This document shows, piece by piece, positions 9,946-19,010 of a stretch of 64,000 bases of DNA (within the stretch, counting starts at the first letter, position 1; the number at the start of each line of letters is the position of its first letter). The translations under genes and the position numbers were made by a program. Origin of the DNA: Actinomycetospora straminea. GTDB taxonomy: Bacteria > Actinomycetota > Actinomycetes > Mycobacteriales > Pseudonocardiaceae. The notes under the pieces are model-generated. The model was not told where the DNA came from and searched no databases. It saw nothing but the letters and a program-made list of their open reading frames with translations. The stretch is taken from NCBI RefSeq assembly GCF_028737255.1, contig NZ_JAQZAN010000004.1, positions 124,001 through 188,000 on the forward strand, in the 5' to 3' direction.

Positions 9946-10236
9946 GTGACCACTGCACTGCCGAGGTCGAGCGAGTCGGCCGACATGCCCGAGCACACCG
10001 GGCCCCCGGGGCCCACAGGACCCCCGGGGCCCACCGAGGTCGTCGTCGCGGTCCCCGACGACGCGGCCACCCTGAGCTGCCGCCTCCACGGCGTCATCGC
10101 CGGGGCGGGCGCGGGCGCGGTGCTGACGATCGTCGTCGACGCCGGCGACCGCATCCACGACCCCGATCTCGCCCGCGTGCTCGCGTGCGCCCGCGACGCC
10201 GCCGCCGGGCGTGGCCTGGGGTTCGTCGTCCGCTAG
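9946..10236 (+). CDS. small STAS-like protein with collagen-like leader
   Basis: About 96 residues. The N-terminus includes GPPGPTGPPGPT, a collagen-like Gly-X-Y stretch. Residues ~30-96 (EVVVAVPDDAATLSC, TIVVDAGDRIHDPDLARVL, GRGLGFVVR) weakly resemble a STAS/anti-sigma-antagonist fold, but the usual phospho-Ser is not evident. The GTG at 9946 has GAGGAG five bases upstream. The identity is tentative. Confidence 0.45.
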   Translation: MTTALPRSSESADMPEHTGPPGPTGPPGPTEVVVAVPDDAATLSCRLHGVIAGAGAGAVLTIVVDAGDRIHDPDLARVLACARDAAAGRGLGFVVR

Positions 10237-10411
10237 CAGGGGCGCCTGTCGGACCGCCGTGCTTTCCTGGAGCCATGTCGTTCGTCCACGGGCACCCGCG
10301 TGAGTCGGGCTGGGTGGTGAGCCACTACCGGCGTCCCCAGCACGCCGGGGACGACCAGCTCGATCTCGCCCTGCCCGCGCCGCGCGCGCAGCAGGACGAG
10401 GCCGAGCAGGC

Positions 10412-16102
<5,691 letters not shown>

Positions 16103-16204: not shown

Positions 16205-16405
16205 TCAGTCGCGGGCGCGGGCCGCCGGGAACGTCAGCAGACCCGGGACGTGCCCGACCCCCCGGCGCGGGACGACGACCCGGTGCCGCGGTGCCTCCTC
16301 GCGCAGGGAGCGCAGGAGGTCGGTCACCGACCGGCCCTCGCCGTGCGCGCCGGACCGGGCGGGCTCGGTCGCGGCGAGGTCGCTGAAGATCGGCGTGGGC
16401 TCCAT
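16205..16405 (-). CDS. small protein downstream of ferric-reductase-like gene, unknown
   Basis: A 66-residue frame beginning MEPTPIFSDLAATEP and ending in a basic stretch (RHRVVVPRRGVGHVPG). The ATG at 16405 lies 12 bp after the stop of the membrane protein on the same strand, so it could be the last gene of the nicotianamine-synthase operon. No domain, signal peptide or Cys/His metal motif is seen. It could also be non-coding. Confidence 0.4.
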   Translation of the reverse strand: MEPTPIFSDLAATEPARSGAHGEGRSVTDLLRSLREEAPRHRVVVPRRGVGHVPGLLTFPAARARD

Positions 16406-16416
16406 CGCCGGCGACG

Positions 16417-17040
16417 CTAGCCGCGGGCCTCGTCCTCCGTCCGGACCTGACCACGATCGTGGGCGGTGGTGTCACCCGGCGGCGTGGCCGGGCGACGCAG
16501 CACCCGGACGAGCCGCACGACGACCCCCACCGCCCCCAGCCCGCCGAGGACGACGAGCACCGCCTCGCCCCACCCGTCGAGCGCGCCCTGGATGATCACC
16601 GCGTGGCCCACGCCCAGCACGACGACGAGCCCGGCGAGGCTCCCGTGCACGAACCGCCAGGTGGCCGCGGACCAGGGCAGGCGCCGCCGCAGCAGGCCGA
16701 GCAGCGTGACGACGACGAGCAGCACCGTCGCGAACAGCGCCATCCGCGCCCGCGTCGGCCCGTCCGGCGACATCGAGTAGAGCGCGTCGTCCGGGCTCTC
16801 GACGACCAGCGCGACCACGTGCACGGCGACGAGCGCGGCGACGATCCCGCCGACCCGGACGTGCGCGCCGACCCGGCGCCGGGTCAGCCAGGGCTGGACC
16901 GCCAGCGCGGCGACCGCGACACACGCCGCCAGCGTCGACACCACCACCACCGGCGAGGCCTGGGCGAGGTGCGGGGCGGCCAGCGCGAGGGCGACGAGCA
17001 GCGCGCCGCCGAGCGCCGCGACCGCGACGAGGACCCTCAC
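16417..17040 (-). CDS. ferric-reductase-like transmembrane protein
   Basis: About 207 residues with five to six membrane helices. Two helices carry His pairs spaced H-x13-H: HVRVGGIVAALVAVH, and the pair in VHGSLAGLVVVLGVGH. This is the bis-haem ligand pattern of the ferric reductase/YedZ-type membrane domain. There is no FAD or NAD domain, so electrons would have to come from a partner. GTG start at 17040 overlaps the upstream gene by GTGA, implying coupled translation. Context next to a nicotianamine-synthase homologue suggests reduction of a chelated metal, which is inference. Confidence 0.65.
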   Translation of the reverse strand: MRVLVAVAALGGALLVALALAAPHLAQASPVVVVSTLAACVAVAALAVQPWLTRRRVGAHVRVGGIVAALVAVHVVALVVESPDDALYSMSPDGPTRARMALFATVLLVVVTLLGLLRRRLPWSAATWRFVHGSLAGLVVVLGVGHAVIIQGALDGWGEAVLVVLGGLGAVGVVVRLVRVLRRPATPPGDTTAHDRGQVRTEDEARG

Positions 17041-17603
17041 GACACCGGCGCCAGCGTCAGGTCGACGACGGCGAGGGTGTCGTCGGCGCGCAGGACGTGG
17101 CGCTGCCACACCGAACGCCACGGGCTGTCGTCGGGGTCGTGGGCGACGTGGACGTTGGGCTCGCCGAACTGGGCGACGGCCGGGTCGGTCGAGACGCGGT
17201 AGCGGCCGTCGGGACCCGTGAGCACGGTCGTGCGGTTCTCCCGCTCGCTGCCGAGGGCGGTCTGCAGCCACACCTGCACGGGCACGCCGGGCAGGGGGCG
17301 GCAGGCGGTGTCGCGCACGAGGCCCGTGACCACGAGCCCGCGGCCCAGCGGCACGTCGAACGGGGCGTCCTCGCGGTAGTTGTTGTCCCCGCCGGGGTTG
17401 GTGACGGTCGGGGCGCACGACGCGCCGGGCAGGGGCGGGGGGAGCGCAGCGACCGGCGCGGCGACCGCACCGGCGGACTCGCCGACCTGGCGCGCCCCGG
17501 TCCCCGACTCGTCGGAGTTCCACAGCGCGGCGGCGATCATCGCCACGAGCAGCACGACCGCGCCCACCGCGAGGGGGTGCGGGCCGGTGCGGGTGGTGGG
17601 CAC
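17037..17603 (-). CDS. membrane-anchored intradiol ring-cleavage dioxygenase-like protein
   Basis: 188 residues. One membrane helix (LAVGAVVLLVAMIAAALW) near the N-terminus is followed by a linker. A ~120-residue beta-sandwich resembles the intradiol dioxygenase/transthyretin-like fold (NNYREDAPFDVPLGRGLVV, PLPGVPVQVWLQTA, VLTGPDGRYRVSTDP). Candidate Fe(III) ligands are the Tyr of NNY, the Tyr of GRYRV and the two His of VHVAH, approximating Tyr2His2. Catalysis is unproven; it may be a metal-binding extracytoplasmic protein. GTG start at 17603. It sits between the nicotianamine-synthase gene and the ferric-reductase-like gene. Confidence 0.65.
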   Translation of the reverse strand: MPTTRTGPHPLAVGAVVLLVAMIAAALWNSDESGTGARQVGESAGAVAAPVAALPPPLPGASCAPTVTNPGGDNNYREDAPFDVPLGRGLVVTGLVRDTACRPLPGVPVQVWLQTALGSERENRTTVLTGPDGRYRVSTDPAVAQFGEPNVHVAHDPDDSPWRSVWQRHVLRADDTLAVVDLTLAPVS

Positions 17604-17628
17604 GTCACCAGGGTGCCCTGCGCGCGGA

Positions 17629-18558
17629 TCAGGCGGGGACGCGGGCGAGCACGACGGAGTTGACGACGTCGGTGTGCGGGTGCAGGACCGCCAGCGGCTC
17701 CAGCCCGCCGAGGCCGTCGCCGGCGACGTCGAGCACGGGGTAGAGCAGGCCGCGCAGGGAGTGCGCGCTGCGGGCCAGCACGGTCGCTCCGGGGCGCATC
17801 CGGGCCCGGACGTGGGCCAGCGCCGCGGTCTTGGCGTCGGGGTCGAGGCCGACGAGGGCGGCCACGCAGACGAGGTCGTAGCCGGCGAGGTCGTCGAGGT
17901 GCAGGACGTCGCCCTCGCGGACGGTGACGTCGTCGCCGAGCGCCCGGGCCACCGCGCCGCCGAGCGCGACCGCCTCGGCGTCGACGTCCACCGCGTCCAC
18001 GGCGACGCCGTACCGGGCGAGCAGGAGCGCCGAGAGCGGCAGGGGCCCGGCGCCGACGAACAGGGCCCGCCGCGGCGGGAGGGGGGCGTGGCCGGCGACG
18101 GCGTGGTACTCGATCCGCGTGAGGTCGCGGTAGTTCTGCAGGTAGGGGAAGCGCTCGAGGGCGGCGGCGGGATCGTCGGCGGCGAGGACGCGGCGGGCCC
18201 ACGCCCGCTCCAGGGCGTACTCGCCGGCCGAGCACCGTGCCCGCAGGTCCGGGAGCCGGTCGGTGAGCTGTGGGTCGGCGAGGACGGCGTCGACGACGTG
18301 GGCCGGGCGCGGGACGACGGCCAGCCCGACGAGGCGGGTGAACAGGGCGTCGGTGCCGGGGCCGGGCTCGAGCGTCGGGGCGGCGACGAGGGCGTCGTGC
18401 AGGGCGAGGATCTCGGTGACGAGGGCGGCGGCCCCGCGGTCGGGCGTGCAGGCCCGCACGGGCACCCGGGCCGGGAGGTCGAGCGGGCGTTCGGCACGGC
18501 TGCGGGCGGCGGCCCGGGCGGCGGGTCGGGCAGCGGGTCGGTCGAACGGGGTGCTCAT
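17629..18558 (-). CDS. nicotianamine synthase family protein
   Basis: 309 residues matching nicotianamine synthase along its length. Motifs are GEYALERAWA (~112-121), FPYLQNYRDLTRIEY (137-151), the SAM-binding GAGPLPLSALLLA (169-181), VDVDAEAVALG, DLVCVAALVGLDPDAK (228-243), RSAHSLRGLLYPV (263-275) and HPHTDVVNSVVLAR (293-306). These follow plant and archaeal enzymes in order. By spacing, Glu117 and Tyr143 could correspond to the catalytic pair of the archaeal enzyme (inference). The reaction would join aminocarboxypropyl groups from SAM into a nicotianamine-like metallophore. ATG with GGAGG ten bases upstream. First gene of a minus-strand operon, divergent from an ArsR sensor. Confidence 0.9.
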   Translation of the reverse strand: MSTPFDRPAARPAARAAARSRAERPLDLPARVPVRACTPDRGAAALVTEILALHDALVAAPTLEPGPGTDALFTRLVGLAVVPRPAHVVDAVLADPQLTDRLPDLRARCSAGEYALERAWARRVLAADDPAAALERFPYLQNYRDLTRIEYHAVAGHAPLPPRRALFVGAGPLPLSALLLARYGVAVDAVDVDAEAVALGGAVARALGDDVTVREGDVLHLDDLAGYDLVCVAALVGLDPDAKTAALAHVRARMRPGATVLARSAHSLRGLLYPVLDVAGDGLGGLEPLAVLHPHTDVVNSVVLARVPA

Positions 18559-18641
18559 CGGGAGTGGACCTCCACCGGGCGGGGCGTCGTCGGCCGGTCA
18601 CCCATGGAACACGATCTGTCGCCCTGGCACGATACGTAAAC
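18559..18641. promoter_or_regulatory. divergent control region between nicotianamine synthase and ArsR genes
   Basis: An 83-bp shared intergenic region. It holds an inverted repeat GTGGA-CC-TCCAC at 18564-18575 that overlaps the ribosome site of the nicotianamine-synthase gene. It also has an unusually AT-rich, partly palindromic GATACGTAAACGTGTAC at 18631-18647, abutting the GTG of arsR. Both are candidate ArsR operators; binding is inferred. Confidence 0.45.
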
Positions 18642-19010
18642 GTGTACGCAACCGACAACGTCGACGCGACCCGCGCGTTCGCCCACCTGCCGGACCCGGC
18701 GCACGTCGAGGTCGCCGTCGAGGGGCTGCGGATGCTCGCCGACCCGACCCGGTTGCGGATGTTGTGGCTGCTCTGCGGCGCGGAGCTCGACGTCTCGACG
18801 CTCGCCGACCGGCTCGGAGCGACGCGGCCCGCGATCTCGCAGCACCTCGCGAAGCTCCGGCTGGCGGGCCTCGTCACCCAGCGGCGTGCGGGACGTCACG
18901 TCCTCTCGCGTGCGCGGGACCACCACGTCGGCGAGCTCCTCGACGTGCTCGTGCACGACGCGGGACACCGTAGGGCGATGAGCGCGCACCCCGCGGGGGG
19001 CGCGCCGTAG
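18642..19010 (+). CDS. ArsR/SmtB-family metal-responsive repressor
   Basis: 122 residues from the GTG at 18642. The winged helix spans ~25-90 (RMLADPTRLRMLWLL, VSTLADRLGATRPAISQHLAKLRLAGLV). The last helix carries D93-x-H95 ... D106-x2-H109, the alpha5 ligand layout of SmtB/NmtR-type zinc or nickel sensors with Asp in place of the second His. The alpha3 ELCVCDL arsenic/cadmium site is absent. It therefore probably senses Zn, Ni or Co (inference). Divergent from the nicotianamine-synthase operon, its likely target. An upstream GTG (18564) would add a non-conserved leader. Confidence 0.85.
   Translation: MYATDNVDATRAFAHLPDPAHVEVAVEGLRMLADPTRLRMLWLLCGAELDVSTLADRLGATRPAISQHLAKLRLAGLVTQRRAGRHVLSRARDHHVGELLDVLVHDAGHRRAMSAHPAGGAP

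What the first reader, a model, noticed from the sequence alone, without database searches (positions are those of the whole stretch)
16205..19010. Nicotianamine-synthase operon in an actinobacterium, with redox-like partners
The 309-residue protein at 17629-18558 shows the main nicotianamine synthase motifs in order (GAGPLPLS, FPYLQNY, AALVGLD, RSAHSLRGLLYP, HPHTDVVNSVV). Directly downstream, with GTGA coupling between the last two, are a membrane-anchored intradiol-dioxygenase-like protein with Tyr/His ligands and a ferric-reductase-like membrane protein with two H-x13-H pairs, plus a small protein. No opine dehydrogenase (CntM) or histidine racemase (CntK) is near, so the product should be nicotianamine-like rather than staphylopine-like. 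The combination suggests a metallophore made inside and a membrane redox pair acting on its metal complex. I know of no described system with this layout.
Basis: partly seen in the sequence, partly recalled or inferred. Interest (0 to 1): 0.85.

Follow-up and report, generated by a model that had tools for sequence, protein, structure and literature searches.

The report
Repressor-controlled nicotianamine synthase in Actinomycetospora
A soil bacterium carries a plant-type gene for making the metal-binding molecule nicotianamine, paired with its own metal-sensor switch, which suggests that it may make the molecule to cope with too much metal rather than to scavenge scarce metal.

Summary
The nicotianamine synthase (NAS) gene is real (Pfam NAS 191 bits, cut-off 27) and has counterparts of residues essential in Arabidopsis NAS1. 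The genus is Actinomycetospora. The proposed redox partners do not belong to it: in 5 of 18 genomes they lie about 50 kb away or on another contig, one genome keeps them with only a NAS fragment, and two keep NAS without DIOX.

An operator-like palindrome lies between them; its core occurs exactly once per genome in 12 of 16 genomes, each time at NAS. NAS of other actinobacteria often has a Zur-box-like site upstream (22 of 40 loci with either of two published motifs; Actinomycetospora 0 of 11).

Best reading: NAS stands under a dedicated repressor that excess metal releases, making nicotianamine an intracellular metal buffer, a small-molecule counterpart of smtB-smtA. Binding, sign of control, metal and product are inferred, not shown.

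The parts
17629..18558 (-). nicotianamine synthase (NAS), 309 aa
   Evidence: PF03059 191.1 bits, cut-off 27.1; E113, E117, Y143 and V236-G-L-D239 match residues essential in AtNAS1
18642..19010 (+). ArsR/SmtB-type regulator, 122 aa, divergent from NAS; GTG start
   Evidence: HTH_5 52.3 bits, cut-off 22; NF033788 85.1 bits, cut-off 55; adjacent to NAS in 14 of 14 Actinomycetospora loci; D93, H95, H109 invariant in 15 rows
18634..18661 (.). operator-like 28-bp imperfect palindrome (8 of 14 pairs in the window), overlapping the ArsR start codon
   Evidence: its core TGCGYACACGNNNACGTAT occurs once per genome in 12 of 16 genomes, always at NAS; not reported by the repeat finder in the window itself
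17037..17603 (-). DIOX: membrane-anchored beta-sandwich protein resembling intradiol dioxygenases, iron ligands not kept; neighbour, not judged part of the NAS system
   Evidence: separable from NAS
16417..17040 (-). FRED: ferric-reductase-like membrane protein with two H-x13-H pairs, no flavin domain; partner of DIOX, not of NAS
   Evidence: PF01794 25.5 bits, under its cut-off of 28; four invariant His
16205..16405 (-). small conserved ORF, 66 aa, between FRED and a carboxylase gene; kept also where NAS or DIOX-FRED is lost
   Evidence: L037, L210

Best explanation
The unit is a two-gene, dedicated switch: arsR <- operator -> NAS. NAS joins aminobutyrate units of S-adenosylmethionine into nicotianamine or a close relative (inferred from kept residues). 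An ArsR dimer sits on the palindrome between the genes and represses both (inferred from layout and conservation). When free divalent metal (zinc, nickel or cobalt; not resolved) rises and fills the alpha-5 site, ArsR lets go and NAS is made. Nicotianamine then binds the excess metal inside the cell. It would do chemically what the SmtB-controlled metallothionein SmtA does with a protein. This is the opposite sign of control from that expected for the Zur-box-bearing NAS genes of other actinobacteria. DIOX-FRED is a separate membrane module that became a neighbour in one lineage.
For: Shown: NAS family membership. ArsR beside NAS in 14 of 14 Actinomycetospora loci and in 0 of 16 loci of other genera, some of these cut short by contig ends. 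The pair is kept in three settings whose other neighbours differ, ArsR 68-73% and NAS 54-56% identical between window and the other settings. Conserved palindrome: mean symmetry 8.29 of 14 pairs against 4.09 at other offsets, best other 6.21, 14 related rows. Core pattern (drawn from these loci) once per genome in 12 of 16, nowhere else; reversed control 0 of 16; none in the two genomes without intact NAS. At the G210 locus ArsR and most of NAS are missing together. Zur-box-like sites: S. coelicolor motif, at most 1 mismatch, upstream of 19 of 40 other actinobacterial NAS genes against 4 of 401 control genes; 0 of 11 in Actinomycetospora. ArsR-linked NAS form one clade, 99/92. From families: M. 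smegmatis SmtB detaches from DNA in the presence of zinc and the exporter gene zitA is transcribed (PMC7174638, passages).
Against: No binding, expression or product data. The alpha-5 site is not canonical: Asp106 stands where NmtR and the L102 ArsR have His, although His105 is beside it. One Actinomycetospora NAS (L036) is followed by a nickel/cobalt permease gene (NicO, 315 bits), which fits uptake better. Group A loci have, by my reading of the sequences, an amino-acid-type ABC transporter and an MFS gene within a few genes. No TGAWAATNATTWTCA within 1 mismatch occurs in 4 Actinomycetospora genomes, and znuA of 3 genomes has instead a palindrome like CGATAACCGTTATCG, so the genus may use another Zur sequence; that palindrome is not upstream of NAS either (best 5-7 mismatches of 14). 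The nearest relatives of the ArsR clade (L101, L103) and L102 also lack a Zur-box-like site at NAS, so a loss of Zur control is not shown. Loci are not independent. G178 and G227 have the operator only in a more diverged form. SrnR, an ArsR-family protein, is recalled as using metal as co-repressor.
Confidence: 0.47

Rival explanations
1. Secreted zincophore: NAS makes nicotianamine that is exported and re-imported under zinc or nickel shortage; ArsR only fine-tunes it or uses metal as co-repressor.
For: Many other actinobacterial NAS genes have Zur-box-like sites, and some lie with SBP_bac_5, permease and MFS genes. L036 has NicO next to NAS. Group A loci have MFS and ABC genes a few genes away. 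An Egibacteraceae NAS lies in a locus with znuA and a FUR-family gene (L102).
Against: No Zur-box-like site upstream of Actinomycetospora NAS (0 of 11). The transporter genes near group A NAS are not the ones near group B NAS. Alpha-5-type ArsR proteins are as a rule released by metal (family knowledge).
Confidence: 0.28
2. One reading: a metallophore with DIOX-FRED as a redox pair acting on its metal complex.
For: Same strand and close spacing in the window and in 7 other genomes, so co-transcription is plausible; FRED keeps four His as in diheme membrane cores.
Against: Unlinked in 5 genomes, reciprocal losses in G235 and G210, no DIOX in NAS-bearing G219, DIOX-FRED pairs without NAS nearby in two other families of the phylum.
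Confidence: 0.07
3. The NAS product serves something other than metal handling, such as a building block of a secondary metabolite, and the ArsR senses a non-metal signal.
For: In Jiangellaceae and a myxobacterium NAS is followed by an ATP-grasp ligase-like gene, and elsewhere lies beside or is fused to a GNAT gene, so NAS can feed longer pathways.
Against: No tailoring gene is constant beside NAS in Actinomycetospora. The window ArsR has one Cys (C45), which is Ser in L010, while D93, H95 and H109 are invariant; this favours a metal site over a thiol switch.
Confidence: 0.13

Closest known systems
smtB-smtA divergent pair of Synechococcus (ArsR-family repressor and metallothionein)
   Same: Divergent ArsR/SmtB-family repressor and a metal-binding effector with the operator between (layout recalled; SmtB is the best PDB match by sequence, 55.7 bits)
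   Different: Here the effector gene encodes an enzyme making a small chelator, not a metallothionein; the alpha-5 site has Asp in place of one His
Plant and fungal nicotianamine synthase (AtNAS1)
   Same: PF03059; counterparts of the catalytic Glu and Tyr and of the E73 and VGMD features of NA producers (VGLD here)
   Different: Bacterial, beside a dedicated ArsR; product untested
Archaeal thermonicotianamine synthase (3FPE, 3O31)
   Same: The only solved structures that match by sequence at E 0.001, 54 bits
   Different: They lack most of the VG(M/L)D stretch in that alignment; about 190 of 309 residues align
Staphylopine/pseudopaline (Cnt) opine metallophores
   Same: Both use an NAS-type aminobutyrate transferase
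   Different: CntL model not met (17.5 against 350 bits); CntM search inconclusive
Zur-box-bearing actinobacterial NAS loci (Jiangella, Nocardiopsis, Haloechinothrix and others)
   Same: Homologous NAS, about 40-50% identity
   Different: Zur-box-like site upstream, in some transporter or ATP-grasp genes beside; no ArsR seen next to NAS

Membership tests
Nicotianamine synthase (PF03059) | Profile score over the curated cut-off | tested here: met
   191.1 against 27.1 bits
Nicotianamine synthase (PF03059) | Catalytic residues equivalent to AtNAS1 E77 and Y106 | tested here: met
   E117 and Y143 invariant in 20 NAS rows; essentiality from PMC10248798 passages; correspondence made by motif and spacing, not by aligning AtNAS1 itself
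NA-producing class of NAS | AtNAS1 E73 and 206-VGMD-209 | tested here: met
   E113 four residues before E117; VGLD at 236-239 (Met to Leu); in the other actinobacterial rows the four letters vary, only the Gly is invariant
NA-producing class of NAS | Makes nicotianamine from SAM | not testable with these tools
   needs an enzyme assay
Staphylopine CntL | NF033601 equivalog cut-off | tested here: not met
   17.5 against 350 bits
Opine metallophore system | CntM-type opine dehydrogenase in the genome (PF10100) | tested here: inconclusive
   no match in 7 genomes, but no control genome rang either
ArsR/SmtB metalloregulators | HTH_5 and metalloregulator profiles over cut-off | tested here: met
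   52.3 against 22 bits; 85.1 against 55 bits
Alpha-5 metal sensors (SmtB, CzrA, NmtR) | D-x-H-x10-H-x2-H/E | tested here: inconclusive
   D93, H95, H109 kept, Asp106 in place of the third ligand, His105 beside it; consensus recalled, checked only against the NmtR alignment and L102
Zur-controlled zincophore genes | Zur box upstream | tested here: not met
   best window match 5 and 4 mismatches for the two motifs, 0 of 11 congeners within 1; the genus may have another Zur sequence
Intradiol dioxygenase (DIOX) | PF00775 cut-off | tested here: not met
   18.2 against 27.3 bits
Intradiol dioxygenase (DIOX) | Two Tyr and two His iron ligands | tested here: not met
   one invariant His, Tyr not invariant, Asn150 two before H152; ligand set recalled
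Intradiol dioxygenase (DIOX) | Fold | tested here: inconclusive
Ferric reductase transmembrane component (FRED, PF01794) | Cut-off score | tested here: not met
   25.5 against 28 bits for the window protein; many relatives carry PF01794
Ferric reductase transmembrane component (FRED, PF01794) | Two H-x13-H heme pairs | tested here: met
   H60/H74 and H132/H146 invariant in 24 rows

The most novel reading that the evidence does not exclude
Nicotianamine acts in Actinomycetospora as a small-molecule counterpart of metallothionein: a single-target SmtB-type repressor turns on NAS when metal is in excess. One NAS lineage would then stand under the opposite sign of metal control from the Zur-box-bearing NAS genes of other actinobacteria.
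Probability: 0.4. Interest if true: 0.75.

Novelty: new variant of a known kind. Interest (0 to 1): 0.6.

Why it matters
The bacterial nicotianamine-type molecules that I know of are scavengers made when metal is scarce. A NAS under its own ArsR repressor would show that bacteria also use such a molecule to buffer excess, as plants do. [quoted passage not shown] outline, passages, sections 5 and 9). The single-site operator makes the idea testable with one gel-shift and one transcript assay.

Tried and rejected
The redox-pair idea was rejected on linkage. My early idea (note) that ArsR and NAS are also divergent neighbours in the Egibacteraceae MAG L102 was wrong: a reading frame that I take for methionine aminopeptidase lies between them. 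A nickel-only reading (NicO in L036, a HypB-like gene in L062) was set aside because zinc links are commoner. For this, and for the transporter genes near group A NAS, I lowered the main confidence from 0.50 to 0.47 and the novel case from 0.42 to 0.40, and raised the zincophore rival from 0.25 to 0.28 and the third rival from 0.12 to 0.13. The PF10100 search gave no information. The sigma-70 scan found no promoter, and none is claimed. In the window the palindrome was not reported by the repeat finder and is only 8 of 14 pairs. My first Zur scans used a consensus from memory; two published motifs replaced it. One search used 51 of the 80 named loci: L100 was dropped as too near a contig end, and L106, L129, L136-L138 and L146-L168, which are mostly not actinobacterial, were left out; unnamed loci were not used. 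The class-level DIOX search found only weak matches outside the own genome and scored 8 candidates a genome. No fold for FRED was obtained. Literature. ArsR together with nicotianamine synthase occurs in one held paper, a phytoremediation review seen only in the listing. A work on 'ancient roots of nicotianamine' is named in papers listed; it was not read. PMC10248798, PMC7438024, PMC8000910, PMC5472717 and PMC7174638 were seen as passages only.
Full report
WHAT IS THERE. The ORF at 17629-18558 (-) is a nicotianamine synthase: PF03059 191.1 bits against a cut-off of 27.1, positions 5-270 of 276, the only match in the genome. Its nearest named relatives are from Actinomycetospora (A. lemnae 89%), so I take the window to be from that genus. 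The solved relatives are archaeal (54 bits). Residues reported as essential in AtNAS1 (E77, Y106, E73, VGMD; PMC10248798, passages) have counterparts E117, Y143, E113 and VGLD 236-239; E117, Y143 and G237 are invariant and E113 nearly so in 20 NAS rows. The CntL model is far from met (17.5 against 350 bits). A nicotianamine-like product is therefore likely but not shown.

THE REAL PARTNER. An ArsR/SmtB-family gene (18642-19010, +) is divergent from NAS. tblastn found it beside NAS in 14 of 14 Actinomycetospora loci and in 0 of 16 loci of other genera among the 30 loci (about 1.5 kb on each side, some shorter). The pair sits in three settings whose other neighbours differ: group B (carboxylase and cyclase side, 8 loci), group A (5 loci) and L036. 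Solved relatives include SmtB (55.7 bits) and NmtR (48.8 bits). D93, H95 and H109 are invariant; position 106, His in NmtR and in the ArsR of L102, is Asp in the Actinomycetospora rows, with His at 105.

OPERATOR. The DNA between the genes holds a block conserved between groups whose NAS are only about 55% identical: a 28-bp imperfect palindrome, clearest in L012 and L016 (11 of 14 pairs). Mean symmetry is 8.29 of 14 pairs over 14 sequences, against 4.09 at other offsets and 6.21 at the best of these. The rows are related, so this is descriptive. In the window it is 8 of 14 (letter-shuffle P 0.005; 0.05 for L005; 0 of 20000 for L012). The core pattern, drawn from these loci, occurs with up to one mismatch once in 12 of 16 genomes, at the NAS locus, and nowhere else. 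G178 and G227 have more diverged copies, G200 and G210 none; the reversed control gives 0 of 16. This looks like a repressor with one target.

CONTRAST WITH OTHER NAS. Two published Zur motifs (PMC5472717, passages) were sought in the 260 bp upstream of the NAS match. With at most one mismatch the S. coelicolor motif is found at 19 of 40 other actinobacterial loci against 4 of 401 control genes from the same loci; the 17-genome znuA motif at 9 of 40 against 6 of 401. Read from those rows, either motif is at 22 of 40 (no control was run for the union). Actinomycetospora gives 0 of 11 for both. Half of the 22 are Jiangellaceae; 11 named genera are involved. The 12 ArsR-linked rows and the 22 Zur-box rows fall on two sides of one branch (99/92; 59 rows). 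Three Pseudonocardiales MAGs (L100, L101, L103) are sister to the ArsR clade; L101, L103 and the deeper L102 have no Zur-box-like site (L100 could not be tested), so the ancestral control is unknown. A further caution: TGAWAATNATTWTCA within one mismatch occurs nowhere in 4 Actinomycetospora genomes. Upstream of znuA two genomes have CGATAACCGTTATCG and a third a diverged form, which may be the genus's own Zur box or another regulator's site. It is not upstream of NAS (best 5-7 mismatches of 14 in 11 congeners, the window and L036). Each of 4 Actinomycetospora genomes has three FUR-family proteins.

MECHANISM. SmtB/CzrA-type repressors leave DNA on binding metal; in M. smegmatis SmtB detaches in the presence of zinc and the exporter gene is transcribed (PMC7174638, passages). 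Applied here, excess metal would switch NAS on and nicotianamine would bind the metal within the cell. Shown: gene identities, linkage, operator conservation and uniqueness, and the Zur-box contrast. Inferred: binding, sign of control, metal, product and cellular role. Against it stand the odd alpha-5 site, NicO beside NAS in L036, and an ABC and an MFS gene near group A NAS.

KNOWN OR NEW. NAS in actinobacteria is known from genomes (PMC12454661; NCBI names 'nicotianamine synthase family protein'). An ArsR-linked NAS was not found in the held literature by the searches listed under Tried and rejected. I rate it a new variant of a known kind.

Noticed in passing
L104:10801-12063; L106:10843-12126: In Jiangellaceae and the myxobacterium Pyxidicoccus an ATP-grasp/L-amino-acid-ligase-like gene follows NAS (PF13535 and PF18603 in L104; cluster c2 within four genes in 23 of 118 NAS loci, duplicates included), with an MFS-like gene next in L106: a possible amide-extended nicotianamine metallophore.
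   Followed up: partly
L118, L119, L126, L181 (partly L134, L143): NAS beside SBP_bac_5, permease, ABC ATPase and MFS genes (Pfam run on L118 only; same clusters in the others), with Zur-box-like sites upstream in several: a likely nicotianamine-type zinc import system. They were not searched for an opine dehydrogenase.
   Followed up: partly
L036, L101, L105, L111, L115, L121; P0278: A GNAT acetyltransferase gene (Pfam run on L105 only) lies next to NAS, or beside its ArsR in L036, and P0278 is a NAS-GNAT fusion (489 aa), suggesting an acetylated product.
   Followed up: no
L210 (G210, about 10044-10277): Actinomycetospora locus in which ArsR, most of NAS and the start of the cyclase-like gene are missing while DIOX, FRED and the rest of the locus remain.
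   Followed up: yes
L036:10317-11453: A NicO nickel/cobalt permease gene directly follows the ArsR-linked NAS in one Actinomycetospora genome.
   Followed up: no
L102:8805-16500: Egibacteraceae MAG: NAS in a locus with znuA, further zinc-ABC-like genes, a FUR-family gene and a separate ArsR with a canonical alpha-5 motif.
   Followed up: partly
window 10412-16102 (-): A single 1896-aa chain with biotin carboxylase, biotin, ACC-central and carboxyltransferase domains, which I recall as an unusual, eukaryote-like architecture for a bacterium.
   Followed up: no
L228 and L229, upstream of znuA: Palindrome CGATAACCGTTATCG upstream of znuA (diverged in L230); in L229 and L230 a LacI-like reading frame runs the other way. 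It may be the genus's Zur box or a LacI-type operator.
   Followed up: partly
L219, L220, L222: DIOX-FRED pairs without NAS nearby in two other families of the phylum: an unexplained module of a putative diheme membrane protein and a beta-sandwich protein.
   Followed up: partly
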